64,000 nt of DNA from the NCBI RefSeq assembly GCF_000007305.1, contig NC_003413.1, positions 558,001 through 622,000 on the forward strand. The letters run 5' to 3'. The translations under genes were made by a program, and so were the position numbers. Source of the stretch: Pyrococcus furiosus DSM 3638. Its GTDB lineage: Archaea > Methanobacteriota_B > Thermococci > Thermococcales > Thermococcaceae. Of this stretch, positions 7,055 through 37,212 are shown in pieces. The notes below the pieces were generated by a model. That model did not search any database. It was not told the origin of the DNA and saw only the letters and a program-made list of their open reading frames with translations. How positions within the stretch are numbered: position 1 is the first letter of the stretch; every line of letters starts with the position of its first letter.

Positions 7055-8401
7055 TTACTTCTTGAGCTTTTCACACTTCTTTACCCACTCCTCAAGAACG
7101 TCTCTGAGCTTTGGCTTGCCTATTTCCTCAAGCTCATACTTGACTCTTACTGCAGGCTTGTTGAGGTTCATGAATCTTCTTAGGTCTACTGGAGTTCCCA
7201 TAACGACAACGTCTGCATCTGCTCTGTTAATTGTTTCCTCTAGCTCTTTGATCTGCTTCTTGCCGTATCCCATTGCTGGGAGTATGTTGCTTAGGTGTGG
7301 GTACTTCTTGTATGTTTCAATTATTGACCCAACAGCGTATGGCCTTGGATCTACTATCTCCTTAGCTCCGAACTTCTTGGCTGCTATGTAACCTGCACCG
7401 AAGCTCATTCCACCATGGGTGAGGGTCGGACCATCCTCAACTACGAGAACGCGCTTACCCTTGATTAGCTCTGGCTTGTCCACGAAGATTGGTGATGCTG
7501 CTTCAATGACTATAGCATTTGGATTTATCTTTTCAATGTTCTCTCTAATCTTCTGTATGTTCTCTGGTGGGGCTGTGTCTATTTTATTGATTATAATAAC
7601 ATCAGCACTTCTGAAGTTTGTTTCACCTGGGTGGTGTGTCAACTCATGACCAGGTCTGTGTGGGTCAGTGACAACTATCCATAAGTCGGGCTCGAAGAAT
7701 GGGAAGTCGTTGTTCCCACCGTCCCAGAGGATTATGTCGGCCTCTTTCTCTGCCTCCCTCAGTATCTTCTCGTAGTCAACTCCAGCGTATACTACCATTC
7801 CTCTCTCTAGGTATGGCTCATACTCTTCTCTCTCCTCAATTGTACACTCATATCTGTCGAGGTCCTCAAAGGTCGCAAAGCGCTGAACAACTTGCTTTCT
7901 TAGATCACCGTAGGGCATTGGGTGTCTGACTGCAACTACCTTGAATCCCATCTCTTGGAGGATTTGGGCCACTTTTCTTGAGGTCTGGCTCTTTCCACAT
8001 CCTGTTCTGACTGCAGTTACGGCTACAACGGGCTTGCTTGACTTTAGCATTGTGCTCTTTGGTCCAAGTAGCCAGAAGTCAGCCCCAGCACTGTGGGCTC
8101 TACTTGCTAAGTGCATGACGTGTTCGTGAGAAACGTCAGAGTACGCGAAAACCACTATGTCAACATCATGCTCTTTGATTATCTTTTCCAAATCATCTTC
8201 TGGTAGAATTGGAATTCCATTTGGATACAGTTCACCAGCTAGCTCTGGGGGATATATTCTCCCCTCTATATCTGGAATTTGGGTGGCAGTGAAGGCAACA
8301 ACCTCGTAATCTGGGTTATCTCTGAAAAAGACGTTGAAGTTGTGGAAGTCTCTACCCGCAGCACCCAGAATTACAACCCTTCTCCTTTTTTTCTCGGCCA
8401 T
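7055..8401 (-). CDS. COG2403 predicted GTPase, cyclic 2,3-diphosphoglycerate synthetase-like
   Basis: The 448-residue protein has an N-terminal Rossmann-like region (VVILGAAGRDFHNFNVFF) and a P-loop domain with TAVRTGCGKSQTS near residue 130. The conserved motifs DGGNNDFPFFEPD and VVEDGPTLTHGGMSFGAGY follow. It resembles the cyclic 2,3-diphosphoglycerate synthetase of methanogens and the COG2403 family. Pyrococcus is not known to accumulate that solute, so the actual reaction is uncertain. I take ATG 8401 rather than the GTG at 8410 because TGAGGTGATC ends 4 bp before it. It is divergent from hypC and shares a 240-bp upstream region with it. Confidence 0.75.
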   Translation of the reverse strand: MAEKKRRRVVILGAAGRDFHNFNVFFRDNPDYEVVAFTATQIPDIEGRIYPPELAGELYPNGIPILPEDDLEKIIKEHDVDIVVFAYSDVSHEHVMHLASRAHSAGADFWLLGPKSTMLKSSKPVVAVTAVRTGCGKSQTSRKVAQILQEMGFKVVAVRHPMPYGDLRKQVVQRFATFEDLDRYECTIEEREEYEPYLERGMVVYAGVDYEKILREAEKEADIILWDGGNNDFPFFEPDLWIVVTDPHRPGHELTHHPGETNFRSADVIIINKIDTAPPENIQKIRENIEKINPNAIVIEAASPIFVDKPELIKGKRVLVVEDGPTLTHGGMSFGAGYIAAKKFGAKEIVDPRPYAVGSIIETYKKYPHLSNILPAMGYGKKQIKELEETINRADADVVVMGTPVDLRRFMNLNKPAVRVKYELEEIGKPKLRDVLEEWVKKCEKLKK

Positions 8402-19962: not shown

Positions 19963-20865
19963 TTAAATTATTCCATACATATTTTGCAGGTCTTGGGATA
20001 TACTAATAGCGTTCTCCTTAATTACATTCACGAGCAGTTCTTGGACTTCTTCTGAAAATATTGTTTTTCTTCTTTTTGTGTTGGCTAGATTTTCTAGTAT
20101 CTCCTTGGATATGCTTAATCCATAATCAGATCCAGTAGCCACGCTCTTATCAATTTCATATAAAGCCCTTAGTTCTCTGAAGTTTGGTTTAACTGTTAAC
20201 TTTCCGCTCTCGCGCTTGACATCCAAATAAAGTCCTGACAGACCATAAAACGCTACATCTACCAATCCGATGTATTCTTTTTTTCCACTGTAGGCTTGGG
20301 CCTCTTCAATAAACTTTATGCTTTCCAACATGTTAGACAGACCAATAATAAGAGAATTGCTTCTTTGATCCGATAAATAGCCTAGAATAGCCTTTTTTAC
20401 ACCCTTATAGTCCTCTACTCCGTTGAGAGTACACCTATAAACAAAGCGAGCAGGTGTGTCTACTAACAATCCTCCGAGAAGATATACCTTTAATTTCTCT
20501 GAGGGGCTTAAGTCCTTAAAATTCTCTTCCAGCAATGAAGCGAGTTTAGTTTTTCTCACATACCATGAATTCTCTATAATCTTTACATCTAGTAATCCAA
20601 AGTTCCACAGTAGTAACATAATGCTCTTTATTCTAGGGGATCCAATTTTAGATCTCGACACTGTCTTAATTTTATTGAAACTTATTTTTGCGTAATTTTT
20701 CCTTATTGTTTCTATTTTTGATCCTTCTGGGGCATAGGGAGCCAGGGTTATTAGAGTGTCGACTAATTTTTCTATTTCTTTAAGTCTTTTGGTGACTTTC
20801 TTAGTTTTTAGATATTTTAAAGCTTGTAGATATGAGACACTTCCCTTAATTCCTACTACTTTCAT
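19963..20865 (-). CDS. Unknown protein, 300 aa, divergent from a P-loop ATPase
   Basis: I do not recognise a family. The product is basic in its N-terminal third (LKTKKVTKRLKEIEKL), mostly helical, with no signal peptide. The region KIGSPRIKSIMLLLWNFG followed by ENSWYVRKTKLASLL looks like a winged-helix fold, so DNA binding is possible. ATG 20865 gives six bases after GGAGGG; the ATG at 20871 would touch that ribosome site. A perfect 8-7-8 inverted repeat lies 20 bp upstream, between this gene and the divergent ATPase, so the two may be co-regulated and act together. Confidence 0.65.
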   Translation of the reverse strand: MKVVGIKGSVSYLQALKYLKTKKVTKRLKEIEKLVDTLITLAPYAPEGSKIETIRKNYAKISFNKIKTVSRSKIGSPRIKSIMLLLWNFGLLDVKIIENSWYVRKTKLASLLEENFKDLSPSEKLKVYLLGGLLVDTPARFVYRCTLNGVEDYKGVKKAILGYLSDQRSNSLIIGLSNMLESIKFIEEAQAYSGKKEYIGLVDVAFYGLSGLYLDVKRESGKLTVKPNFRELRALYEIDKSVATGSDYGLSISKEILENLANTKRRKTIFSEEVQELLVNVIKENAISISQDLQNMYGII

Positions 20866-20884
20866 CGACATCCCTCCGTTTTCC

Positions 20885-20907
20885 TAAATTCCATGTCTAG
20901 GAATTTA
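20885..20907. promoter_or_regulatory. Perfect 8-7-8 inverted repeat in a divergent promoter
   Basis: TAAATTCC (20885-20892) and GGAATTTA (20900-20907) flank ATGTCTA. The repeat lies between the unknown protein gene and the IS-broken ATPase, upstream of a TATA-like GTATTTAAGAG, so it may be an operator for both. Confidence 0.5.
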
Positions 20908-21447
20908 ACTCTATCGGAAAGTATTTAAGAGCTATTATAACAATAGTTAGTTATGAGGTGAATTACCATGACGCCCATGGAGACATCTAATGAGCAAATT
21001 TATAATATCTATCTTCCTAAGGTAGCAGAAGAGTCTCCTATCGATTCTTTAGAAAAAATTGAACCTGTTGGTAAGATTAGAAATTACATCGACATAAGTT
21101 TTGAAGGTATCAAGCGGGTCGAAAATGGAGTCTCAGCATTTTATCCCATGGCAATCTTTGGATACTATGGGAGCGGAAAAACATTCTTTGTGAGAAAGCT
21201 ATCGGAGAAGATAGTGAAAGAGTTGGAAAGAACTATACCTTTGCACTTTTATCTAGGACAGACATCTTATTTCGACTTGATTAAATTTGTGGACGAACTG
21301 ATAGAAAGTATAGAGGTCTTTATTGAAAGAGGAGACAAAACTAAGGCAACGATAAGTGGATATAATCCAGAAAAGTGGATGAAGTATCTAGAGGTTTTAA
21401 AAGCAGCTAGAGAGAAAATTTCTAATGAGGAGGCAGAAAAAAGCAAT

Positions 21448-21455
21448 GTGGAAGC
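21448..21455. repeat. Left 8-bp target-site duplication (GTGGAAGC)
   Basis: GTGGAAGC at 21448-21455 is repeated at 22237-22244, directly outside the two IS ends. Eight bp is the IS6-family norm. Confidence 0.93.
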
Positions 21456-22236
21456 GATACTGTTAGGATAAGCTGTGGGGTGTCAGGTTTAAGTTACTGG
21501 CAGTACTTTAGAAAAAGAAGGGGGAACATGAAGTCTGAAACCATTATTTACTGGGTGGTTTCAGCCTTAAAACCCTTTCGTCGCAACAAAATCCCACCAG
21601 AAAAGAAAATCAGGGGAGTAGAATTATACCTGCGAGGCCTCAGTTACCGGCAAACCGCCAGAATACTCAAAATCAGTCACGTAACAGTCTGGGAGGCAGT
21701 CCAAAAACTCGCAGAAGCAGTTTACAAGCCAAAAATCCTCGCAGTCAAAAAACAGCGAAACTTCATCGCAGTTGACGAAACAGTAATAAAAATCAACGGG
21801 AAGAAAAGATACCTCTGGGCTGCAATTGACGTTGAGAGCAAGGAAGTTTTAGCAGTCTGGATTACGACTGTTAGAAACTGGTGGGTTGCCAGGGATTTCA
21901 TTCTGGTTGTTTTAAAGTCGTGTGAAGGGCAGCCTGTCTTTCTGGTTGACAGGGCGAGCTGGTATAAGTCTGCTTTTAAGAGTTTGAGGTTGGGTTATCT
22001 GCATGTGACTTTCGGGCCGAGGAACAGTGTTGAGCGCTGGTTTAGGACTGTTAAAGAGAGAACAAAGCGTTTCTGGAATAACTTCAGGGCTAGAGACTGG
22101 AGGAGGGTTCATAGGTTTGTTTTTCTGTTTGCCTTCTGGTATAATTTTGTCAGAATTCATTCTAGTTTTGGTGATCCGCCTGGTGATGTTACTGAATGGC
22201 TTCAGGAGGTGATGCCCCAGTTATCCTAACAGTATC
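21456..22236 (+). mobile_element. IS6-family insertion sequence (ISPfu1/2/5 type), 781 bp
   Basis: The ends carry the inverted repeat GATACTGTTAGGATAA (left, from 21456; right, reading back from 22236) and are flanked by an 8-bp direct repeat. The single intact transposase gene inside has all its catalytic residues, so the element may be active. The ISPfu naming is from memory. Confidence 0.93.
21528..22229 (+). CDS. IS6-family transposase
   Basis: The 233-residue transposase has an N-terminal helix-turn-helix (LYLRGLSYRQTARILKIS) and the DDE residues: D in FIAVDETVIK, D in VFLVDRASWY and E in GPRNSVERWFRTVK. ATG 21528 follows AAGGGGGAAC; an upstream in-frame start at 21480 lacks a ribosome site. 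It is intact and ends 7 bp before the right end of the element. The codon usage and basic composition are typical of these elements in Pyrococcus. Confidence 0.93.
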   Translation: MKSETIIYWVVSALKPFRRNKIPPEKKIRGVELYLRGLSYRQTARILKISHVTVWEAVQKLAEAVYKPKILAVKKQRNFIAVDETVIKINGKKRYLWAAIDVESKEVLAVWITTVRNWWVARDFILVVLKSCEGQPVFLVDRASWYKSAFKSLRLGYLHVTFGPRNSVERWFRTVKERTKRFWNNFRARDWRRVHRFVFLFAFWYNFVRIHSSFGDPPGDVTEWLQEVMPQLS

Positions 22237-22244
22237 GTGGAAGC
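22237..22244. repeat. Right 8-bp target-site duplication (GTGGAAGC)
   Basis: This is the second copy of the duplication made by insertion of the IS6-family element. It should be removed when rebuilding the ATPase gene. Confidence 0.93.
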
Positions 22245-23203
22245 ATTCATAAAATTCTTAAATGAGATTAACCATGCTGGGTACTATCCCTTTGTATTCT
22301 TCGATGAATTTGAAACAGTCTGGATTGGTGGAGTCCTCCAAGATGATAGGAGCTATAGGGTTTTTGTAGACTTTTCCAGTAGATTATTCGAGATGATAAG
22401 AGGAAAGGCGTACTCTGGAGGAATATGCTTTGTTCTAACGAAACCAGTTAGAGAACTTATTAGAGAGGCAGCCTCCATGAATCCTAGACTGGTAAGAGAA
22501 CTTAACGAGGCCTTCGGAACAAGTCTTGTAGATTATCCAGAGATGTATCCGTTAGAGAGAGAACCAGCCAGAGAAACTTTGAATATATTTAACATTAATT
22601 GGAGTTATGAGGATCTTGAACTATTGTCTAAAAAGTACAACCTAGTAATTCATGAGGATATTCTAATGGCAATTTCAAGAGTTCTCCCAACTCCAAGAGC
22701 CGTTATAAATATCTACTACAAGCTATTAGCAATTAACAGGAGTAATATAACATCCCCGACGATTTTTGGAAAACTAGCGGAGGACAAACTAGACATATTC
22801 ATAAATAAAGTAATCTCAGAATTTGTTGCTCCAAATTCAAAATGGCACTTAATATTCAAAACGCTAGTTGAGAATGGCATCCTCTATGTCTACTCAAGAG
22901 ATTGGGAGACAATTAAGAAAATAGCCGCCCTACTTGAAGTTTCAGCTTCCGATGAAAAGAAGCTTGTACAAAAGGTCAAAAACTACCTCAATAAATTAAG
23001 AGATTTAGGTCTATACGAGTATAACAAACCGTATTCAACTTATCTAATCTCTCCAGATGTGCTAGCGTTCCTTCTAGGAATTGAAAAATTACCAGATGGA
23101 AGAAAAGCAAACGAAGACACACTAAAATTGAAAGTAAAAGCAAAGATAGAAGAAAGAAAAAAGAAAAAGCAGATGTATAGAGAGAGTAAAGTGATATCTT
23201 AAA

Positions 23204-23260
23204 GACTCAGCGATGGGCCAGCTTCATCACCGCTCAGTCGGGGCTAATCTACATCATCGC
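23204..23260 (-). ncRNA. C/D-box small RNA (2'-O-methylation guide)
   Basis: On the minus strand, reading from 23260: C box ATGATGT (23257-23251), 13-nt spacer, D' box CTGA (23237-23234), 3-nt spacer, C' box GTGATGA (23230-23224), 13-nt spacer, D box CTGA (23210-23207). This is the standard archaeal box C/D layout with two equal guides. Only the last base of box C differs from RTGATGA. By the N+5 rule both guides would direct methylation of a G, in targets reading CGAUGGGCCAGCU (D guide) and UCGGGGCUAAUCU (D' guide). I could not identify the target RNA. The RNA begins directly after the stop codon of the SNF2 helicase gene and may be cut from its transcript. Confidence 0.85.
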
Positions 23261-26083
23261 CTAGCTTAACTTAAGTAAATGCCTATCTTTCTTCTTTATC
23301 TCAATGTTGATATTAACCTCAACATCTTCCCCATTCTTAACCACGAATACTCTTCTATCCTGGGAAAATGGTTTGTAAATTTTTACAATTACGGGGTCTT
23401 TGGCAATGTTCGAGACTATGTATATCCAGTACTTATCTTCATTTTTTTGTGCGAACTCAAATTCCTTTTCCGTTAACTCCGCAAGTAGGAGCATTGGATA
23501 GTGGCCTTTGACCTCTATGTACTTCTCTTCACCATCTGTAAAGGCCCTTATGTCATAGTGCTCCCTTAAAGATACGTCCTCAACGTTATATCCTCTGCTC
23601 TTCTCTAGCTCCATGACTATTTCCATGGCCTTCTTTTCACTCTCAAGGATTTTATCCAGAGGAACAAAGTTCCTTTCGAAGATCTTGAGGTATTCGTTGG
23701 TAGGTAGTTCTATTTTTGTGGAATCTAACCCTAGAACTTCCATAATCTCAGGGGGAACTCTCTTGATGACTTCGAATTCTTCTTCACTTATCCCCTTTAC
23801 CTCGAGGGCTTTCTTTATTTCAACCTTAAGCCTCTTGAAGATTTTACCTTCTTTGATGTTTAAGCTATCGTATTCCAGATACTTCTTCACGATTAAATTG
23901 TATATGTTGTCCATAACTAGCGTCTTAACTTTATAGTCCACCTCTTCACTTGCCCCTCTAACGACCTTGTACTCTTTGGATAGTACCTCACTAATCCTCT
24001 TGAGTAAGTTGAATCCAACAAGGTACTTTCCGTTCTCAGCAAGAATTGGATATCTATAAATTTCTCTCCCATCTTCGTCGTAGAATATGGCATAGTACAC
24101 ATCCATAGAGCCATCATAGCCCTTAACTAATACTCTAATTCCCTCAATCCCCTCGGCTTCTCTTAAAAGTCCTCTCACCAAGCGGAACGGATTTGGAACG
24201 TTCCTATTAACGATTTTCTTTAATACTTCCACATCAGGAGTGTCCTCTAAAATTATCTCGAGCTCTCTCCTTATGCTTCCCGCAGGATTTACAGGAACTG
24301 CTCCCTCCACTTTCTGCTTTAGGATTCTGAGAGTCCTAACTAGAGCCCCGGCATAGCCCTTGAGTTCTCCCTTAATTGAGGCTAGGATAAGCTCATACTC
24401 TGAGACTTCTCTATTTTCTTCCTCGGCACCTTCATTCCATAGATTTTCAAAGTCTCCTTCAAATATTGGCCTTCCAATAATGGGTCCACTTCCCACGGCT
24501 TCCTTTATGTTCATAATCTTTCTATAGAGGTTGTTTAGAACATCCAAGTCCGTTTCCGTTGCAAGAAATATGGTATATGCTTTGGTTTCTCTCGTTTGGT
24601 TGAGCCTCCATATTCTTCCCACCCTCTGTTCGAGCTTTATTGGGCTCCAGGGGGCCTCGTAGTTTATTACAACACTTGCAACGTGCAGGTTAAGTCCTTC
24701 GGATGCAACATCCGTAGAGACTAATAGGTTAGCCCTTTCATGAAACTTGTTGATTTCCCTCTCTATTTCCTCAGATTTCATGCCCCCATGAAGTTTTGCA
24801 ATGTCATCTTTTTCCAAAACAATGCCGTGCTTTCTCCTTAGGATATCTGGTAACCTCTCAAGTACGTATTCGAGGGTATCTCTAAATTCCGTGAATATTA
24901 TGACCTTTTCGCCGTTCCTAATGTGATAAGCAACTATATCGGATATAACCTCAAGCTTGCTATCCTTGCTGCCAATTTTCTTTCCAAGCTCGAGAACTCT
25001 TCTAAGCCTTTCGAGTTGCTCTTCAGTTAAGAATCCCCTATATTCATCTATTATTTTGTGTATCGCATCATCTATCTCGTTAAATTCTTCTATTTCCAAT
25101 TCCTCATACCCCATTCTAAAGATCTTTTCAATGTATGATTCAACGCCTCTGGCTCTTTCTTGCCCACTTATATAAGCGCTTTCAACGATCCTGGTTAGGG
25201 TTTTTAGAGCCGCTTCGTAGCTGGACGAGGCTCTCTTCCTAATGATTACTGCAAGAAGAGTTAAGGGAGAGTAATCAGCTTGATCCTTAATCAGCTCGAA
25301 TAGCGCTCTATTTAACTCTTCAAAGAACTCCCTCTCCTCTCTGCTAACTTCTACCACGACAGCCCCAAAGTGACACTTCTTGAACACTTCTCCTTCAAGT
25401 TCGTTGACAACCTTCTTAGTTCGCCTTAGTACCAATGTCCCTCTTGACTTCATGTAGATCTTCCTTTCGTGCATTGGGGATATTTCCTCTGGTATAGTTG
25501 GGTCGAGGAGCCTAAGCCTCGCAAGGTAATCTCTATTGTTTCCCCTGTGGGGGGTTGCTGAAAGGAATATAACGTTCAAATCCTTGTTCTTGGTTAGTTC
25601 TTTTAAGAACTCATATCTCTGTGTTCCCAGGGTGGCGTTGTGGACTTCGTCAACTATTACTAAATCCCACTTTTGACGGAGTATTTCCTCGGTGTATCTC
25701 TTAGCTAGGTCTATTGATATTATGAAGTACTTCCTCGGCCTTTTCAACTTCCATTCAATTTCGCTACCATTCTCTATCACTTCCGGAGCTTCCTCTAAGA
25801 TCCTCTTTACTTCTTCCCTCCACTGCTCCCTCAGAACTTTTGGAACGACTATCAAGGCTTTCTCAATCTCTCCCCTAAAATCGAGGTACTTGGCTATTAA
25901 AAGAGCTTGAATGGTCTTTCCGAGACCTATCTCATCAGCTATCATTAGCCTCACTGGCCTCATGAGCATGGCATGATAGAGGGTCTGGAACTGATGCTTG
26001 AAAGGAATGATGCCTTTATCAGAATAGGAATAAACAAAAAGGTGGGGGTTGTGGAGGATAACGTCCCTAAACAACCCTTTCAA
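23261..26083 (-). CDS. SNF2-family helicase with C-terminal DUF3883-like nuclease domain
   Basis: The 940-residue protein has SF2/SNF2 motifs: Walker A DEIGLGKT (residues 50-57), DEVH (145-148), FLSATPHRGN (motif III) and the C-terminal helicase half with STDVASEGLNL and QRVGRIWRLNQ. Near residues 843-860, YDIRAF…KYIEVKG has the D…E-V-K pattern of DUF3883, a predicted PD-(D/E)XK-like domain. A translocase-nuclease effector is therefore likely. It starts at TTG 26083, overlapping the previous stop within ATTTGA, with GGAGGTTGAAATGA upstream. It is the last gene of the DUF1156-DUF499 operon, in which this helicase type is a known companion. Confidence 0.88.
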   Translation of the reverse strand: MKGLFRDVILHNPHLFVYSYSDKGIIPFKHQFQTLYHAMLMRPVRLMIADEIGLGKTIQALLIAKYLDFRGEIEKALIVVPKVLREQWREEVKRILEEAPEVIENGSEIEWKLKRPRKYFIISIDLAKRYTEEILRQKWDLVIVDEVHNATLGTQRYEFLKELTKNKDLNVIFLSATPHRGNNRDYLARLRLLDPTIPEEISPMHERKIYMKSRGTLVLRRTKKVVNELEGEVFKKCHFGAVVVEVSREEREFFEELNRALFELIKDQADYSPLTLLAVIIRKRASSSYEAALKTLTRIVESAYISGQERARGVESYIEKIFRMGYEELEIEEFNEIDDAIHKIIDEYRGFLTEEQLERLRRVLELGKKIGSKDSKLEVISDIVAYHIRNGEKVIIFTEFRDTLEYVLERLPDILRRKHGIVLEKDDIAKLHGGMKSEEIEREINKFHERANLLVSTDVASEGLNLHVASVVINYEAPWSPIKLEQRVGRIWRLNQTRETKAYTIFLATETDLDVLNNLYRKIMNIKEAVGSGPIIGRPIFEGDFENLWNEGAEEENREVSEYELILASIKGELKGYAGALVRTLRILKQKVEGAVPVNPAGSIRRELEIILEDTPDVEVLKKIVNRNVPNPFRLVRGLLREAEGIEGIRVLVKGYDGSMDVYYAIFYDEDGREIYRYPILAENGKYLVGFNLLKRISEVLSKEYKVVRGASEEVDYKVKTLVMDNIYNLIVKKYLEYDSLNIKEGKIFKRLKVEIKKALEVKGISEEEFEVIKRVPPEIMEVLGLDSTKIELPTNEYLKIFERNFVPLDKILESEKKAMEIVMELEKSRGYNVEDVSLREHYDIRAFTDGEEKYIEVKGHYPMLLLAELTEKEFEFAQKNEDKYWIYIVSNIAKDPVIVKIYKPFSQDRRVFVVKNGEDVEVNINIEIKKKDRHLLKLS

Positions 26084-26508
26084 ATCATTTCAACCTCCAT
26101 AAACCTTCTTGCTAGGAACATAAGCTTTCTCATGTTCTTGTACTTCCAATAGGCGTTTCTGAACTTCGAGGCCCAATACCTTAACTCAATGGGCTCCATC
26201 TCAAGAACCCTTTCCTCAAGCCTTCTCCAATCTCCTGGGTTTCTAAGAACGCCCATGACCACTCCATAGACCATTGCCCTTAGATAGGCATAGTCATCTT
26301 CAGTTATCATTCTCCTCTTCTTTACCTCAAACCCTAGCCCCTTGGCAAAGTCTGAATACTCTGGGAGAAATACTCTGGCCTTTGCTTCCACTCTCCCTAG
26401 TGTGCCGTCTTCAAAAATAGGATAAAATTCGGCGAGCTTCTGCTCCCTATTCACGGCAAGTTGCGCGGGCTTAATGTACTTCAGTTTTATGAGGTACTTC
26501 ATCCCCAT
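26080..26508 (-). CDS. Small conserved protein of the DUF499/DUF1156 operon, 142 aa
   Basis: I do not recognise a named family. The protein has a short beta-rich N-terminal part (LIKLKYIKPAQLAVNREQ, then EDGTLGRVEAKARVFLP) and a helical C-terminal half rich in Arg, Tyr and Trp (LRYWASKFRNAYWKYKNM). The start overlaps the DUF499 stop as TAATG, and its own stop overlaps the helicase start, so the three are translationally linked. Its fixed place between the ATPase and the helicase suggests an adaptor within one complex. Confidence 0.7.
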   Translation of the reverse strand: MGMKYLIKLKYIKPAQLAVNREQKLAEFYPIFEDGTLGRVEAKARVFLPEYSDFAKGLGFEVKKRRMITEDDYAYLRAMVYGVVMGVLRNPGDWRRLEERVLEMEPIELRYWASKFRNAYWKYKNMRKLMFLARRFMEVEMI

Positions 26509-29500
26509 TAGCTCTCCCTCCTTTTGAGCCTAAACCTTACCTTTCCAAATAGTGGCCTCAGCTTCTCGATCACCAGGTCGTTTATTACAACTTCTTCGCT
26601 CGCGACAACATCAACATTGAGAGCTGGGTTGCTCTCAAAGAACTCCTTCATTTCCTTTACTATGTGCTTGAAAATCTCCAAGTCAACGTCCTGGAACTCG
26701 GTTCTCCATAGTGGTTCCTCAAATTCAAGGCTTCCACTGGCACTTCCTTTGAACTCTATCCTGTCTAGAGAGTCCACGTCTTTAATGGAGTGAACTGAGA
26801 GTAGTATATATCCCTTGTGCTCTTCCTTTATCTCTTTAACTTCTATGACATCCTCTAACTTTGGAATTAGAAGTATTTTTGCCTCGGCTTCCTTTCCTTT
26901 GTTGCTCTTCCCTTTTATGATGACTTCCCTCTTAACCCTTGGAATCTTAGCTCTCCACTTAACCTTGGCTTCCTCTCCTCTAAGCTCAACTTCCTCAACT
27001 TCCAGCTCTCCAAAGCTCGAAGATAGGGACACTGTGAATTCGTCATCGCTTATCGGCTTCACAGTTACTTCAACTTCAATCTCTTCTCCCGGCTTGCCCG
27101 TTATGCTTGCCCTACTGACACTTATCTCGAATTCTCCCTCCATGACTTTCTTTTGTTCTCTCTTTTCTACTATGTATCCCCAAAGTATTCTGTCCAGATC
27201 TTCTTTTACTTCACATTCCTCACTAACTATGCTCCTCAATGGTATCGTGAGATTCTCCTCTGGTATGTAAATCTCATACCAAACTTTAATCCAGTACTTC
27301 TCACCGCCTTTTTCCACAATGAGGTCTTTTTCTTCATTTAGCAGGGAGCACAACTGCCTCTGAAGTGCTATTTCCCTGGGGAGTATTAAGTCTCTCACCT
27401 CTATATTGGCTGGTGGATGCCCTTTCTCCTCTTCGCTTGGTATCTCTTTGTAGACTTTTTTGAAGAAAATCCTTCCATCTCTCTCTATTCCCACCTTAAG
27501 CTCTTCTACTGCCCTCCTTATAATTTCAGTTAGCGCCTTATCAGCGATCATTGGTAGCTTTGGATTCGTCTTGAACACATTTCTCAGCTCTGAGAATGGA
27601 TATCCCTTTCCTGGGAAGTCTATTCCAACCTCTGCAAGAATATCTCTAAGCCACTCAAAGTCAGCCTCTTCATCTACCACTATCTTGCCCTTAGATACGA
27701 GGGCCGAGTATACGTTCTCAACGACTGACCTTGAGGATGGAGTTGCATCTATTATCTTTACCTCCTCACCCTCTGGGTAAGCAACGCGCCTGAATGAAGT
27801 TATTAATTGATTCTCCAAATCTTCGAGGGCTTTTTCCCTAATCTCCCTTACCATATTTCTCTGTATCTCCTCGACTTCTCTGCCGTACCTTCCATATGTA
27901 GACCTTATCTCTCTCATTACCTCATCGCAGGCCATAACCCTTGCAGTGAGTTCTATTAGCGCATCCAGTGAGTTTTCGACTAAGTAACAGATAACTACAG
28001 TGTTCCTGAACGTTCTTGCCGAGGTGTTCTCGAAGAATATCAGCCTTTCTAGGGTATCCTTACTTACGTCATCCCTAACGATAACCTCAAGCTTGTACTC
28101 TGGAGTGTCCCTAAGCTCTTGAGGATCTTTGGTAACTATTATCATGTTCTTCTTGAAGAATGGTATCTCTCCGCTAGAAGACCTTCCCCTTAAGCTTCTT
28201 CCCTCTCTAATGAATTTATCGGCGTAGTTGACAAGGGAACGCCAAGCATCTCCATAGCTAGTTTCAATTAGCTCCCTTGTTTTACTCTCCACTAGCTTGT
28301 TCACATTTGCTATCCTCCAGAACCAGAAGGTCTTGTCCTTCTTTGCAAGGTACATGAACTTCACGCTTTTTCCTATCTCTTCTACGGTGTCCCTGATATC
28401 TGCTGGTAGCCAATTGTTCCTCTCAAATGTATCTGGCTCGTAAACTCCCCTAGCAATGCTCTCTGGCACTGGAAATCCTGGGAGTGGAGTTGGGCTGTCA
28501 AACGGGTAAGTCTTTAGGAATATGTACTTCAATATTATTTTCGCTAACTCTGGATTTGACAATCCTTTAACTTTCTCTTCGTTGATATCAGCTTCCAAGA
28601 CTGCTTTGTAGTCTGCAAATGTTGTGCTCTTTCCAAAGAGAAGCCCTTTTATTGCCTCATCTTCTAGGTCTATGTGGTATGGCATTATTATCCCAGGAGG
28701 GTCGTTGATGAGCTTTCTCACAACTATCCTCGTAATCTTTATGAGATCTCTCGTCCTCTGGAGGCCAGTTCTCTCTATTATGTTTCTCAGCACCTCTATG
28801 TACTCTGGATGGAAGGGATAGCTAACTTCAAGAGCCTCAAAAAGGCCCGAGGCCATTCCGAATATTTCCCTGTTGCTCATGACTTCCCTCAACTTCAGCA
28901 AGATTCTGGTCTTCTCCTCCTCATCTATCCTCTTGAATATCCTCTTCTTCAAAACCCCAATGAGCTCGTTTTCCCTCCCCTCAGTCCTCATTGGGGAGTA
29001 GAGGTTATGTCCGGCTACCTTTGTTACAGCACTCCAGATGCTGTTGACGGTCTTCCTGTCGTATAGTTCCTCAACCTTTCCTTCCCCTTCCATTGGTAGG
29101 GTTAGTATCATAATGCTCCTAGTAACGGTTAACGCTTTCGCCAAGTTGTGGAGGAAATTAGCGACGTTCTCTGCGTAATTTCTATCATCCTCATTGGCGC
29201 TCCTTGAGAGAGTGTAAACGTGGTGGGCAATCTCATCAATGAGCAAGAGGACATTTTCATCTTGGAAGAGCTTTACCAACTCCTCTATCGGGGGAACAGT
29301 CAAGTTCCTGTCATAATCTTCCACGAGCTCGTACTTACCCAGGGAATTTGCTATGTATCCCCAAACGGTTCTAATCTTTCCGTTGAGCGGTTTGCTTGGC
29401 TGTCCAATGTTTGTTTGGCCATGCACGATTATTATCCTAGCCTTAACGTTTTCGGCTAGATAGCTTAACTCTTCCAATTTTTCTTTGATTTCTTTTCTCT

Positions 29501-29825
29501 GCCCTTCCAACACTTCTCTTTCTCTAAGCGCTCCTGGGTTCCTTAAAGCGTGGTACACGCTCAGTAGAGTGTGACTCTTACCTCCACCGAATAAAGAGTA
29601 GATTAGGATGACATTGTTCCTTTCCTCTCCCCTTAGCGTCTTTATCACTTTCTCTAAAATGTCAACTATTGAGGATGTGAAGTAAGTTCTCTTGAAGAAC
29701 TCAACTGAATCGAGGTAAATATTGGGTGCGTTTCCCTCCACTACTTTGTACAATTCGGGGGCCACTTCCTCATCAAGCCTTTCATCCAAAACGTCTTCCC
29801 AAACTTCATGCTTTCCAAACTTCAT
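26508..29825 (-). CDS. DUF499 (COG1483) AAA+ family ATPase
   Basis: The 1105-residue protein has Walker A SLFGGGKSHTLL (G80-T85) and Walker B NVLLLIDEIAHH (D197, E198), with the DUF499 signature around them. The C-terminal third (about residue 880 on) looks like immunoglobulin-like beta strands (GEIEVEVTVKPISDDEFTVS). DUF499 proteins occur next to DUF1156 methylases and SNF2 helicases in predicted defence islands, and I infer a motor or switch role. It starts within ATGA overlapping the methylase stop, behind GGGGTGAAATGTT. Confidence 0.9.
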   Translation of the reverse strand: MKFGKHEVWEDVLDERLDEEVAPELYKVVEGNAPNIYLDSVEFFKRTYFTSSIVDILEKVIKTLRGEERNNVILIYSLFGGGKSHTLLSVYHALRNPGALREREVLEGQRKEIKEKLEELSYLAENVKARIIIVHGQTNIGQPSKPLNGKIRTVWGYIANSLGKYELVEDYDRNLTVPPIEELVKLFQDENVLLLIDEIAHHVYTLSRSANEDDRNYAENVANFLHNLAKALTVTRSIMILTLPMEGEGKVEELYDRKTVNSIWSAVTKVAGHNLYSPMRTEGRENELIGVLKKRIFKRIDEEEKTRILLKLREVMSNREIFGMASGLFEALEVSYPFHPEYIEVLRNIIERTGLQRTRDLIKITRIVVRKLINDPPGIIMPYHIDLEDEAIKGLLFGKSTTFADYKAVLEADINEEKVKGLSNPELAKIILKYIFLKTYPFDSPTPLPGFPVPESIARGVYEPDTFERNNWLPADIRDTVEEIGKSVKFMYLAKKDKTFWFWRIANVNKLVESKTRELIETSYGDAWRSLVNYADKFIREGRSLRGRSSSGEIPFFKKNMIIVTKDPQELRDTPEYKLEVIVRDDVSKDTLERLIFFENTSARTFRNTVVICYLVENSLDALIELTARVMACDEVMREIRSTYGRYGREVEEIQRNMVREIREKALEDLENQLITSFRRVAYPEGEEVKIIDATPSSRSVVENVYSALVSKGKIVVDEEADFEWLRDILAEVGIDFPGKGYPFSELRNVFKTNPKLPMIADKALTEIIRRAVEELKVGIERDGRIFFKKVYKEIPSEEEKGHPPANIEVRDLILPREIALQRQLCSLLNEEKDLIVEKGGEKYWIKVWYEIYIPEENLTIPLRSIVSEECEVKEDLDRILWGYIVEKREQKKVMEGEFEISVSRASITGKPGEEIEVEVTVKPISDDEFTVSLSSSFGELEVEEVELRGEEAKVKWRAKIPRVKREVIIKGKSNKGKEAEAKILLIPKLEDVIEVKEIKEEHKGYILLSVHSIKDVDSLDRIEFKGSASGSLEFEEPLWRTEFQDVDLEIFKHIVKEMKEFFESNPALNVDVVASEEVVINDLVIEKLRPLFGKVRFRLKRRES

Positions 29826-32813
29826 AACATTTCACCCCTAACGGCCTTGATAAGCCTGTCCATTAGGATGACCTCATAAAGGCCATCTTTCTCCAATCTT
29901 TTCATGATCTCCCTCTCGTCTTTAATTCCCAGGGCGATAGAATAGACGTTCTTATAGTATGAAGCTACGAGCCTTGCTATGGCTATGGCTTCTTCTACCT
30001 CTGTTGGATGGTTTTTCTTGAGTTCCTCCTTTATTTCCTTAACCCTTGAAGCTCCCAGGAGTGAAGCATGCTCAAGTACGTGAAGAACATCTATTGCATT
30101 CCTATACTTTTCTGCATCCCTCTCCTTAATGAACTTCTGAAGTTCCCTAGTATCTAGGGCCTTCTTACCCAAAAGGTCGGGAGAGTATAGCGTAAGCTCA
30201 CCATTTACCTTCTTTAAGATTTCAAGCTTTAGCAGGCTTGAAGAATCTACGGCCGTAGCTAGGGTTAGTAGTATTATATCGTTCGGCGAAACCTTTGCGT
30301 TCCCAAAGAGCACCTTATAAGCTGTGTAGAATATCCCCTCTCTTGAGAGCATTTCAGCTTTTACATCTTCAGCTATAGCCCCAACTATTCCGTTAATCGT
30401 TGCTGGATATACATACCTCTCTAGGATTTCCCTCACGCTCAGCTCTCCCTTTGGGGATTTCACTGCTTTATACTTTGTAACTTCCGAGAGAACTGAGGCC
30501 ATTACACCATAGAGGAGATCCAATCCATGGTGTCCATAGGAGAGGAACTCTTTGGCACTCTTTACTCCTACCTCAGTTAAGATCTCTTCAAGGTCACTTG
30601 CCCAAACCTCTTTCTCTTCATTCTTCTTTCTCCAAACAACTACTACTGAAGTGTCAAGGGCCATCTTTCCTCTGGCGGTGACTCTCTGAGATGACTCAGT
30701 TCCCAGGGGGAATGCTCTTGTTATCTGGAGCTTTGCTTTTCTCCATCCGGCTTCTATTAAGGTAATCCAGCTTTCCAGATCGGTGTGGGCGTAGTAGGTA
30801 ACTAGTATTCCGTCATCCTTGAGGTGCTCCCTCATGGAGATGAAGGCCTGGCTGAAGAGGTTCTCAAAGTGCCGGACGGCTTTCTCCTTTTTGTTCCCAT
30901 CTTCCATAAAGCGGCCCGGATTAGTGGAGACTTCTTTCTTTGCAAATTCCTGCCACTGTGTCTTGATTTCCACCCATTTGGGGCCGATTCTTTTGAAAAA
31001 CGCTTCCTTGTGGAACCTTGGAACGAGTTTGCCGTTCTCAACGTCGCTCAAAGCCCTCTTGAGCCAGACATAGTAAAAGTCCGAAAGCTCTGTGTACGGG
31101 ACATCGTCGGCGTAGGGTGGGTCAGTCACGATGACGTCGAACTTCTCGCCGAGGTTGAGCGAGGTAGCGTCGCCCTGGAGAACTTTAACGGAGTTTTCTG
31201 TGAAATCGGCGAGGGTTCTCTGGGAGGAAGAAAGGGCGGAGGTGAGGTAATTCAAAGCTCTAATCTGAGAACGCAGAAATCGTTTAAATGTTCCAGTCAT
31301 ATCGACGTTGAAATAAACATCACACCAATTCCAGTTCATGGTAATACCTCTGCTGGCAAGAGTCTGATTTGGGAATAACCATGAAATTGTCCAATGATTA
31401 GTTACAGAGTTGAAATCCATATATCTCAACATCGCCATGCTCAAATACGTCGCCACGGCCTCCGCGTACTCAAAGGCTTTCTCTTCGCTCCAGCCTTCCT
31501 TGAGCTTCTCCTCCTCGATTCTCTTACCAGTTTCCCTTATCAACCTCACGATCTTTATGAGGGTGAGAAGCTGACGGGGGTTGAAGTATTTGTCCCAAGT
31601 ATCCATGCCATGTAAAAGCGTTGGGAAGTTGGCTGGAGGCTGAAGTTGATAATATGCGACTTTTTCACTCGGCACGTCCGGGTCTCCCTTCTCAAGCATC
31701 TCCCTGACTTTTTCTTTTGCCTTCCAAAGCTTCTCGTTGTCCTCCCTTGTGGCGGGCTCGAAGATCAAATCTTTGTTTTTAACCTTCACCTTCACTAGTA
31801 ATCTTTGCCTCGCAAACCTTTCATCTCCTTCGTGGTACTTCTTCAAAGCGAACTTCACATAGAAGTCTACATCCCTTCCCCTGGGCTTCTCGATGTAGTG
31901 ATTTCCATCCTCATCCACATACTTAATCACGTTACCACATGATAAGCAGACAAGCTGGCTCTTCCTCGCTTCTATGTTTGGCTTTGGAACTCTAAAAACA
32001 ACCTTGCTTCCCTCTATTTTAACGTCCTCTTCCTTGATCTTTCCACTTTCGATGGCCTTCTTGACCTTTTCCACGTATCCCTTTCCCTCCAGGACTATTT
32101 CTCCCCTCTCCGTGCTTACCTTGGCTCTTGAAACATCTGCGAATATCTCGTTTAGGTCAATTATCCTAACCTCTCCATTGGGCTCTACCTTCATGTAGGC
32201 GAGCCTCTTGTAGCTCTTCTCATCTTTAACTCTTGCGAGCCAGAAGTTCCCTACGGCTGGAGTCCACCTTCCACAGTGGGGGCACTTAACTTCCCAGGTG
32301 CCTATGTAAACGGCTACATCATCATCGTAGAGTTCCCTAATCTCGGGGTCGTTCTTGAGTTGCTCGGTTATCCAGTTCCCCCACTTCTCCACGTCCTTAA
32401 CCAATAACCAATTGTCTCCCAAACTTCTTTGGATACTCAAGAACGGCCTTGAGGAAGATATATGCAGTGGGTAAGAGCTCGACTGCGGTAACATCAAGTC
32501 CTAACCTTAAACCCTCGAGTGGGATTGAGCCAAACCCAGCAAAAGGATCGAGAAGCTTCTTCCCCATAAACATTGGCTCTGGGTTAGCTTTGTGGCCTTC
32601 GCTAAGCCTTATCTTGGATTTAAACTTGTTAACATCATAATCTTCTGGGAGAAGGGAGGCCGCAATTATAGCTCTCGCCCCTATCAATGGCTTTCGTGTC
32701 CACCAGAAGACCATTTCCCAGTAAGGAGGCCTCCCTGGACCCTTCTCCTTTAGACTCATTCTATTAACTTCTTCAACTGGAAAACTAGGACTTTCAATTA
32801 ATCTCCTTTCCAT
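29822..32813 (-). pseudogene. DUF1156 (COG1743) adenine-specific DNA methylase, split by a 7-bp tandem duplication
   Basis: Removing one copy of the 7-bp repeat at 32398-32411 joins both parts into one 994-residue protein through KKFGRQLVKDVEKWGNW. SAM-binding motif I (LLDPFAGFGSIPLEGL, near residue 89) lies before the break. The Zn ribbon (CPHC near 175, CLSC near 287) and catalytic DPPY (562-565, FDVIVTDPPYADD) lie after it. ATG 32813 (MERRLIESP) is chosen for TCTGGTGTATGTA upstream. As written, the first frame stops after LVIG and no obvious start serves the second. The gene heads the operon, so its loss would leave the downstream helicase and ATPase without the methylase. Confidence 0.88.
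32398..32411. repeat. 7-bp tandem duplication (TAACCAA x2) inside the methylase gene
   Basis: TAACCAATAACCAA (TTGGTTA twice on the coding strand) shifts the frame by one. Deleting one unit restores the expected protein exactly. Confidence 0.9.
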
Positions 32814-32872
32814 TACATACACCAGAAACATTTATTTTAACATAGCGTTATAAACTTATTTGGGGGAGTTTA

Positions 32873-33298
32873 ATGAAGGCGGTGACGTTTCCAGTCCCCT
32901 GGGAGTATCTAAAGAGAATATTCGAGGGAAAAAACGTCTTTGTGAAGCCAGCAACTCTTAGGGTTGAGGAAGGAATGAAGGTTATCTTCTACGCTTCAAG
33001 GGAGAATCAAGGATGGCATGGGGAAGCTGAGGTTGAGAGGGTTGAGTACTACACAAGCGTTGAAGAGATAATCAAGAAGTACAGGGACAAGCTTTTCCTA
33101 ACCCCCGAGGAACTAAGGAGGTATGAAAGGGATAGGGCCAGGTGGGATTCTGGGAGGAGAAAGAGGCCATGGATGGTCCTAGTTCTCAGGAACATCGAGA
33201 AGTATCCTAGAGTTGTGAAGCCAAAGAAGTTTATCGTTGTCTCTGGAAGGTACGTGGATGAGAAAGAGTATGAAGAGATTAGGAGAAGTACGAGCTGA
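32873..33298 (+). CDS. DUF365 family PUA/ASCH-like protein
   Basis: The 141-residue protein begins KAVTFPVPWEYLKRIFEGK and continues with FVKPATLRVEEGMKVIFYAS, the pattern of DUF365, a small PUA/ASCH-like beta-barrel thought to bind RNA or modified bases. It starts at ATG 32873, divergent from the DUF1156 methylase; a single TATA-like element (GTTATAAAC) in the 59-bp gap could serve both. An ASCH/EVE-like reader beside a DNA methylase is suggestive, but a role in the same system is only an inference. Its 3' end overlaps the next convergent gene by 20 bp. Confidence 0.72.
   Translation: MKAVTFPVPWEYLKRIFEGKNVFVKPATLRVEEGMKVIFYASRENQGWHGEAEVERVEYYTSVEEIIKKYRDKLFLTPEELRRYERDRARWDSGRRKRPWMVLVLRNIEKYPRVVKPKKFIVVSGRYVDEKEYEEIRRSTS

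Positions 33299-36580: not shown

Positions 36581-37212
<632 letters not shown>

What the first reader, a model, noticed from the sequence alone, without database searches (positions are those of the whole stretch)
19963..33298. Accessory island with a DUF1156 methylase / DUF499 ATPase / SNF2-nuclease system beside a second ATPase locus
Seen: a minus-strand operon with 1-4 bp overlaps encodes an adenine methylase (DPPY), a GGGKSHT ATPase, a 142-aa unknown protein and an SNF2 helicase ending in a D…E-V-K domain. Next to it are a divergent unknown/ATPase pair and a DUF365 gene. Known: DUF1156, DUF499 and SNF2 genes cluster in predicted defence islands and share parts with DISARM-like systems. 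Inference: one multi-gene anti-DNA system, with the 142-aa protein and possibly the DUF365 and divergent genes as undescribed components.
Basis: partly seen in the sequence, partly recalled or inferred. Interest (0 to 1): 0.8.

Follow-up and report, generated by a model that had tools for sequence, protein, structure and literature searches.

The report
BREX-related defence operon with extra gene
This stretch of archaeal DNA carries an immune operon of a published restriction-like kind, but with an unusual mix of parts and a small extra protein that may be a distant cousin of partner proteins seen in related systems.

Summary
A minus-strand operon encodes a DUF1156 adenine methylase (broken by one frame shift), a DUF499 ATPase, a 142-aa protein and a SNF2 helicase with a C-terminal DUF3883/NOV_C nuclease domain. 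The neighbouring ATPase gene is split by an IS6 element. The core is not new: it is the archaeal COG1743-DUF499-SNF2-nuclease system (2020), PADLOC's Hma (2021) and the BREX-related (BR) systems (2026). It fits no BR subtype as published. The nuclease is type-1-like, but the TUDOR-size N-terminal region is missing and a small gene follows DUF499. In other BR loci that slot can hold DUF7680 or DUF3780. All 8 DUF7680-locus helicases tested look PLD/HKD-like, and 39 of 40 plasmid records with DUF7680 have a DUF1156 methylase within 10 kb. The 142-aa protein resembles DUF7680 weakly (single-test P about 0.001) and fails Pfam's search, so kinship is likely but unproven. The DUF365 neighbour's solved relative is ASCH-like, a plausible modified-base reader. 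Nothing ties the divergent ATPase/302-aa pair to the system. Co-occurrence in Thermococcales could not be counted. Verdict: new variant of a known kind.

The parts
32397..32831 (-). N-part of the DUF1156 methylase (144 aa), SAM-motif-like LLDPFAGFGS; separated from the rest by a frame break
   Evidence: PF06634 E 9.5e-12; PADLOC PDLC03352 positions 3-144, 194.8 bits
29822..32497 (-). C-part of the adenine methylase (DPPY; two CxxC pairs, presumably in the target-recognition insert)
   Evidence: PDLC03352 positions 143-1019, 1102.9 bits; HmaB E 3.3e-39; motifs; 41-50% identity to Sulfolobus virus STSV methylases, depending on the alignment
26508..29825 (-). DUF499 AAA+ ATPase (1105 aa)
   Evidence: PF04465 1409.2 bits; HmaC E 2.7e-42; Walker motifs
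26080..26508 (-). 142-aa protein, proposed DUF499 partner (DUF7680-like slot)
   Evidence: no hit in Pfam, PADLOC, NCBIfam (E 0.1), PHROGs (E 0.01), PDB (E 10), plasmids (E 1) or viral contigs; weak DUF7680 profile match; slot comparison
23261..26083 (-). SNF2 helicase with C-terminal DUF3883/NOV_C nuclease-like domain; lacks the N-terminal TUDOR-size region
   Evidence: PF00176, PF00271, PF13020; 49 residues before the Walker A motif against 124-130 in 7 relatives, 195 in an eighth; in-frame stop 3 codons upstream
32873..33298 (+). DUF365 protein, divergent from the methylase; ASCH/PUA-like fold inferred from 2KKU (possible accessory reader, membership unproven)
   Evidence: PF04033 E 4.1e-45; 2kku_A E 2.3e-26; PMC6803910 Table 2
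19963..20871 (-). 302-aa protein of unknown function (not assigned to the system)
   Evidence: no family hit above cut-off; one weak plasmid match E 0.8; none in viral contigs
20968..21471 (+). first piece of an AAA+ ATPase gene interrupted by the IS element (not assigned to the system)
   Evidence: weak BrxC/D 20 bits, below cut-off; weak PADLOC matches to PDC-S20, BrxD and SngB, E about 1e-3; no plasmid match
21456..22236 (+). IS6-family insertion element, transposase 21480-22229, 16-bp inverted repeats, 8-bp target duplication
   Evidence: NF033587 E 1e-53
22237..23202 (+). second piece of the interrupted ATPase gene (Walker-B-like FVFFDEFE)
   Evidence: sequence; no family hit; only weak matches, E 0.1 or worse, elsewhere; none in viral contigs

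Best explanation
This is a restriction-modification-like defence operon of the BREX-related/Hma kind. The likely mechanism is as follows. The DUF1156 methylase marks the host's own DNA with N6-methyladenine. The DUF499 ORC/Cdc6-like ATPase assembles a scanning complex on DNA. The SNF2 helicase translocates on unmarked DNA and its DUF3883 domain cuts it. The 142-aa gene starts on the last base of the DUF499 gene, and its protein is proposed to sit on the ATPase as an adaptor or reader, doing the job that the N-terminal TUDOR region does in ordinary type-1 helicases. Gene content and domains are shown here. The system's restriction role follows from published predictions and work on relatives. 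The 142-aa protein's role is inference. In this sequence the methylase frame is broken, so the copy may be inactive or decaying.
For: All three core proteins match the Hma models (HmaA E 6.9e-54, HmaB 3.3e-39, HmaC 2.7e-42), PF04465 and PF13020. The gene order COG1743-DUF499-SNF2-nuclease is the archaeal order described in PMC7641849 (passages). The helicase groups with NOV_C-type BR helicases, 100/100, on a long branch. In 10 of 12 DUF7680 loci with gene context, DUF7680 directly follows DUF499 with 1- or 4-bp overlap or a 2-nt gap. The window gene has the same slot and, like the cyanobacterial DUF7680 genes, 142 codons. The profile match scores above all 134 window-ORF controls and 399 of 400 shuffles. 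The helicase lacks the N-terminal region.
Against: The curated DUF7680 model does not find the 142-aa protein at E 0.1. The similarity covers only about 35 residues, and the best shuffles come close to its HMMER score (5.1 and 5.0 against 5.3 and 5.7 bits). DUF499 of the window lies on a long, unplaced branch. DrmD (212 bits) scores above HmaA (181) for the helicase. No activity was tested and no close homologue of this locus was reachable. The methylase is broken here. Most BR loci that I fetched by DUF499 or DUF1156 similarity (12 of 18) show neither DUF7680 nor DUF3780, so the small partner is not universal.
Confidence: 0.7

Rival explanations
1. The 142-aa protein is an unrelated accessory gene (for example a dedicated regulator or inhibitor) that happens to sit after DUF499; the system is otherwise an ordinary type-1 BR/Hma system.
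For: No curated family hit. The DUF7680 similarity is short. No match to DUF3780 (P 0.69). Other small genes occur in BR loci: 206 and 210 aa in L008 and L010, and a 147-aa gene right after DUF499 in L022 that is not DUF7680.
Against: Exact slot, stop-start overlap, equal length and a shared M-x3-E-x2-YW-x2-K pattern; scores above controls.
Confidence: 0.4
2. The 142-aa protein is the helicase's missing N-terminal TUDOR domain, split off into its own gene.
For: It lies directly upstream of the helicase with a 4-bp overlap, and the helicase lacks that region.
Against: Profile comparison with 8 helicase N-termini scores 11.5, inside the shuffle range (top 21.0 of 100), P 0.34.
Confidence: 0.1
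3. The whole 20-33 kb stretch is one system that includes the DUF365 gene and the divergent 302-aa/ATPase pair.
For: Adjacency. DUF365's solved relative is ASCH-like, and EVE genes recur beside this operon type in archaea; one cyanobacterial locus, L025, has an EVE gene upstream of DUF499.
Against: The ATPase gene runs the other way, matches nothing convincingly and is disrupted by an IS element. DUF365 relatives also occur on two small archaeal plasmids (surroundings not read). No co-occurrence test was possible.
Confidence: 0.12
4. The locus is a decaying remnant: the methylase break and the IS insertion mark an inactivated defence region.
For: Frame break in the methylase and IS6 in the neighbouring ATPase gene with intact target duplication, hence probably recent.
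Against: The nuclease, DUF499 and 142-aa frames are open. The frame break could be a sequencing error; the viral and plasmid methylases used here are unbroken. The IS lies outside the operon.
Confidence: 0.35

Closest known systems
DUF499-centred BREX-related (BR) type 1 systems (Rakesh and Krishnan 2026, PMC12839542)
   Same: DUF499 ATPase, DUF1156 N6-methylase, Swi2/Snf2 helicase with C-terminal PD-(D/E)XK-type nuclease
   Different: no N-terminal TUDOR-size region; a fourth small gene in the operon; methylase outside the type-1 group and DUF499 unplaced in my small tree samples
BR type 2 systems (same paper)
   Same: helicase without TUDOR; small gene in the locus, as DUF3780 is there
   Different: no HKD/PLD domain; the small protein is not DUF3780 by Pfam or profile comparison
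COG1743-DUF499-SWI2/SNF2-nuclease-EVE predicted archaeal restriction system (Bell 2020, PMC7641849)
   Same: same three genes in the same order, in archaea (that COG1743 is the DUF1156 methylase family is recalled)
   Different: a small gene between DUF499 and the helicase; a divergent DUF365 (ASCH-like) gene instead of a downstream EVE gene; whether their Fig. S8 loci hold the small gene was not seen
Hma (Payne 2021, PMC8565338)
   Same: helicase, methylase and ATPase models all match
   Different: extra gene; Hma was described as a three-gene operon
DISARM
   Same: DrmD-like SNF2 helicase
   Different: of the ten proteins scanned, only the SNF2 helicase matched DISARM models (its DrmA-model match is to the helicase core)

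Membership tests
BR/Hma core | DUF499 ATPase, DUF1156 N6-methylase and Swi2/Snf2 helicase in one locus | tested here: met
   methylase present but frame-broken
BR type 1 | C-terminal active PD-(D/E)XK nuclease on the helicase | tested here: met
   domain present: PF13020 E 3e-20, D...EVK motif; activity and fold not tested (structure tool off)
BR type 1 | N-terminal TUDOR domain on the helicase | tested here: not met
   49 residues before the Walker A motif against 124-130 in 7 relatives; in-frame stop 3 codons upstream
BR type 1 | only three core genes | tested here: not met
   142-aa gene inside the operon
BR type 2 | HKD/PLD domain at the helicase N-terminus | tested here: not met
   no PLD hit and no room for the domain
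BR type 2 | standalone DUF3780 | tested here: not met
   no Pfam hit; hhalign P 0.69
BR type 3 | PglZ and iSTAND genes in the locus | tested here: not met
   no PglZ hit among the ten proteins scanned in Pfam, PADLOC or NCBIfam; iSTAND not separately tested
DUF7680 (PF24728) | match to the Pfam model above cut-off | tested here: not met
   no hit for the 142-aa protein at E 0.1
DUF7680-like slot protein | profile similarity to DUF7680 above controls | tested here: inconclusive
   HMMER 5.7 bits, E 7e-4 for one target, 0 of 200 shuffles reach it, best shuffle 5.0; hhalign 26.6, 1 of 400 shuffles and 0 of 134 ORF frames reach it
DUF7680-like slot protein | gene directly after DUF499 | tested here: met
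   1-bp overlap
DISARM | DISARM components other than the SNF2 helicase (recalled: DrmA, DrmB) | tested here: not met
   among the ten proteins scanned the only DISARM-model matches shown are to the helicase (other window genes not scanned with PADLOC)
Bell 2020 EVE-associated system | standalone EVE gene next to the operon | tested here: inconclusive

The most novel reading that the evidence does not exclude
DUF3780, DUF7680 and the 142-aa protein are branches of one superfamily of DUF499 partner proteins that replaces the helicase's TUDOR region. This hyperthermophile system, with the TUDOR region lost and the small partner present but the DUF3883 nuclease kept, is a distinct BR subtype. It would show that the small partner tracks TUDOR loss rather than the nuclease swap.
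Probability: 0.35. Interest if true: 0.65.

Novelty: new variant of a known kind. Interest (0 to 1): 0.5.

Why it matters
BR/Hma systems are reported in 3592 prokaryotic taxa (PMC12839542), yet how they tell self from foreign DNA is still a matter of prediction. A locus that breaks the published subtype rules (type-1 nuclease, no TUDOR, small DUF499-adjacent protein) separates two features that otherwise travel together in my sample. That makes the published guess that the small protein stands in for the TUDOR reader directly testable. It also ties DUF7680, for which no paper was found in the held library, to this defence machinery.

Tried and rejected
Co-occurrence in Thermococcales: not possible. 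The two genome-contig scans gave no relative (DUF499 protein: 26 pattern matches, none a relative, a tRNA-Ser pattern taken from the window: 0 matches). Viral-contig searches with the 142-aa, SNF2, ATPase-fragment and 302-aa proteins found no relative. A methylase alignment found only the two STSV contigs again. The plasmid search with the 142-aa protein found none at E 1.

Split-TUDOR origin of the 142-aa protein: no signal. 142-aa protein as DUF3780: P 0.69. DUF7680 against DUF3780: suggestive only. With all columns the alignment runs over 135 columns, E 0.038; after removal of gappy columns it runs over 88 columns, score 19.2, reached by 5 of 300 column shuffles, 1 of them with 60 or more columns (0 of the first 60 shuffles). 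I do not claim it as shown.

AlphaFold2 of the 142-aa protein from a single sequence: pLDDT 47.5, not used. A planned DUF365 model was not possible. DISARM as the parent system: rejected. DNA-level relatives among plasmids: none.

Sampling and label caveats. Of the 18 plasmid loci fetched through DUF499 or DUF1156 similarity (L004-L008, L010-L022), 4 have DUF7680, 2 have DUF3780 and 12 show neither, as far as annotated and tested (L017 is unannotated). L023-L029 were fetched because of a DUF7680 hit and L032-L034 because of a DUF3780 hit. NOV_C was verified by Pfam only for L006, L007, L008 and L010. L012, L016 and L021 in the helicase tree, and L005, L012, L015, L016 and L021 as type 1 in the methylase and/or ATPase trees, were labelled by gene set, length or motif, not by Pfam. 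The DUF7680 group of the trees includes L004, L024, L025 and L026, whose helicases were not tested. L019, L032 and L034 were labelled HKD, and L032-L034 DUF3780, from the records' own annotation. L017 was not used. L014 and L022 were left ungrouped.
Full report
WHAT IS THERE. On the minus strand, reading from 32831 to 23261, are an N-part (144 aa) and a C-part (891-aa ORF) of a DUF1156 adenine methylase, a 1105-aa DUF499 ATPase, a 142-aa protein and a 940-aa SNF2 helicase. The last three junctions overlap by 4, 1 and 4 bp. The two methylase ORFs match positions 3-144 and 143-1019 of the same PADLOC model (PDLC03352, 194.8 and 1102.9 bits), and they split the PHROG 10183 model likewise (12-161 and 162-867). 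So one frame break, with nothing missing, lies in their roughly 100-bp overlap. Divergently, 41 bp away, is a DUF365 gene. At 20968-23202 an AAA+ ATPase gene is split by an IS6-family element (21456-22236; 16-bp perfect inverted repeats; 8-bp target duplication), and a 302-aa gene faces away from it.

WHAT THE CORE IS. The three large proteins match the Hma models (HmaA E 6.9e-54, HmaB 3.3e-39, HmaC 2.7e-42), although DrmD and BrxH models score higher for the helicase (212 and 188 bits against 181). I saw these published descriptions. Anantharaman 2013 (PMC3710099, passages) lists DUF499 in operons where the SNF2 helicase is 'fused to DUF3883, which is a novel REase domain'. Bell 2020 (PMC7641849, passages) reports in diverse archaea an operon of COG1743 methylase, DUF499 and SWI2/SNF2 helicase-nuclease that recurs with standalone EVE proteins. 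Payne 2021 (PMC8565338, passages) named Hma. Rakesh and Krishnan 2026 (PMC12839542, outline, sections 29-33, part 1 of 35, parts 3-4 of the references, passages) define BREX-related types 1-3. The experimental paper on a Snf2-nuclease in Halomonas (their reference 112) is not held; I know it only through that citation. So the core is already known as a system type.

WHERE IT DEPARTS FROM THE PUBLISHED SUBTYPES. Type 1 is described as three genes with a TUDOR domain at the helicase N-terminus and, in 79% of taxa, a nuclease at the C-terminus. Type 2 has an HKD nuclease at the N-terminus instead, with a standalone DUF3780. The window helicase has the type-1 nuclease domain (PF13020, E 3e-20; YDIRAF...YIEVK). 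It has only 49 residues before its Walker A motif, against 124-130 in seven type-1-like relatives and 195 in an eighth of different architecture, and an in-frame stop lies 3 codons upstream. So there is no room for TUDOR or HKD. It also has the fourth gene.

THE SMALL-GENE SLOT. I fetched plasmid and viral loci of the system. Of 18 plasmid loci fetched through DUF499 or DUF1156 similarity, 4 carry DUF7680 (L004, L011, L013, L020; Pfam), 2 carry DUF3780 (L018, L019; Pfam) and 12 show neither as far as annotated and tested. A search with one DUF7680 protein then led to L023-L026 (cyanobacteria), L027 and L028 (rhizobia) and L029 (Rhodococcus), and a profile search to the viral contigs L030 and L031. 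A DUF3780 search led to L032-L034. Of the 12 DUF7680 loci with gene context (L030 excluded), 10 have DUF7680 directly after DUF499, overlapping by 1 or 4 bp or 2 nt apart. The two exceptions are L025 (one gene between) and L020 (no DUF499 annotated). The five cyanobacterial DUF7680 genes are 142 codons long, like the window gene. Of the 40 plasmid records with a DUF7680 match (of 72,556), 39 have a DUF1156 methylase within 10 kb, 27 of them within 100 bp. The 40th (CP118160) has two places of each, and only one methylase place was listed. Many of these records are near-copies, so they are not 39 independent events.

LINK WITH HELICASE TYPE. All 8 DUF7680-locus helicases tested (8 of 13 loci; the others were cut off, outside the stretch or absent; L011 lacks its last residues) have a core starting at about residue 269-327 and a weak PLD match upstream (E 1e-4 to 5e-3, below Pfam's cut-off). 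None matched NOV_C. All 4 NOV_C helicases tested start their core near residue 101-126, and their loci show no annotated DUF7680 or DUF3780 after DUF499 (the 316-aa gene after DUF499 in L007 was not tested). The window is the one locus seen here with a verified NOV_C domain and a small same-strand gene overlapping the end of DUF499, and its helicase is also the one without the N-terminal region. That fits the published suggestion that DUF3780 stands in for the missing TUDOR reader. It is a single case.

IS THE 142-AA PROTEIN A DUF7680 RELATIVE? The Pfam model does not find it. An HMM of 11 DUF7680 proteins gives it 5.7 bits, E 7e-4 for a single target: first among the window ORF frames and ten other small proteins, with 0 of 200 shuffles reaching it, though the best reaches 5.0 (untrimmed model 5.3 against 5.1). 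hhalign with 11-13 sequences gives P about 9e-4 and a score near 26.6-27. One of 400 shuffles and 0 of 134 ORF frames reach it. The matched segment is short (about 35 residues, M-x3-E-x2-YW-x2-K). Three families were compared (DUF7680, DUF3780, helicase N-terminus), so the chance level is about 0.003. I call this likely but unproven, helped by the slot. DUF7680 against DUF3780 is only suggestive (5 of 300 column shuffles as high).

TREES (small samples; label caveats in Tried and rejected). In the methylase tree the DUF7680, DUF3780 and type-1 sets are each one group. The window methylase groups with Sulfolobus virus STSV2 (100/100) outside all three, loosely with type 1 and L014/L022 (92/94). 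The helicase joins the NOV_C group (100/100), but on a long branch that the program flags as unsure. DUF499 lies on a long branch that is not placed. So the window belongs to a deep lineage that my sample barely covers. PF04465 itself fits it full length (1409 bits), so closer relatives probably exist in databases I could not reach.

MECHANISM (inference except where stated). The methylase marks host DNA, DUF499 builds the scanning complex, and the helicase moves and its DUF3883 domain cuts unmarked DNA. The 142-aa protein, whose gene overlaps the end of DUF499, is an adaptor or reader on that ATPase. If the methylase break is real while the nuclease gene is intact and active, the nuclease cannot be a free-standing toxin to unmethylated host DNA; it would need the methylase or DUF499 complex, as in BREX (recalled). 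A sequencing error or a dead system explains the break equally well.

LIMITS. The source organism is not told; the archaeal, probably Thermococcales, origin is inferred from gene content and the DUF365 match. No co-occurrence in its own order was counted. No structure supports the 142-aa claim. The statement that DUF7680 is not in print rests on one full-text search of the held library; DUF3780 was found in one paper.

Noticed in passing
window 21456-22236: Complete IS6-family element with perfect 16-bp inverted repeats and 8-bp target duplication inside an AAA+ ATPase gene: probably a recent insertion.
   Followed up: yes
window 32397-32497: Frame break in the methylase while the helicase-nuclease frame is open; unexplained whether sequencing error, decay or tolerated loss.
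   Followed up: partly
L001, L002 (Sulfolobus viruses STSV2, STSV1): The closest methylase relatives found are viral methylases with no DUF499 in the two virus records searched; 5 of 50,697 phage records match, all STSV-type. They may protect viral DNA from this kind of system.
   Followed up: partly
L030 (viral contig, match 8001-8363): A DUF7680 gene on a viral contig with no DUF499 match in its 34.8-kb record; possible decoy or inhibitor of the defence system.
   Followed up: partly
L031 4669-14298 (viral contig): A DUF499 - DUF7680 - DUF1156 - PLD-helicase locus carried on a putative viral contig.
   Followed up: partly
L025 3660-4088: EVE-domain gene just upstream of DUF499 in a cyanobacterial plasmid BR locus, echoing the archaeal EVE association.
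   Followed up: no
window 36596-37212: 75-aa ORF overlapping a PIN-domain (VapC-like) gene: probable toxin-antitoxin pair close to the operon.
   Followed up: no
plasmids NZ_CP014863.1 and NC_001733.1: DUF365 genes on small plasmids of Thermococcus profundus and Methanocaldococcus jannaschii; surroundings not read.
   Followed up: no
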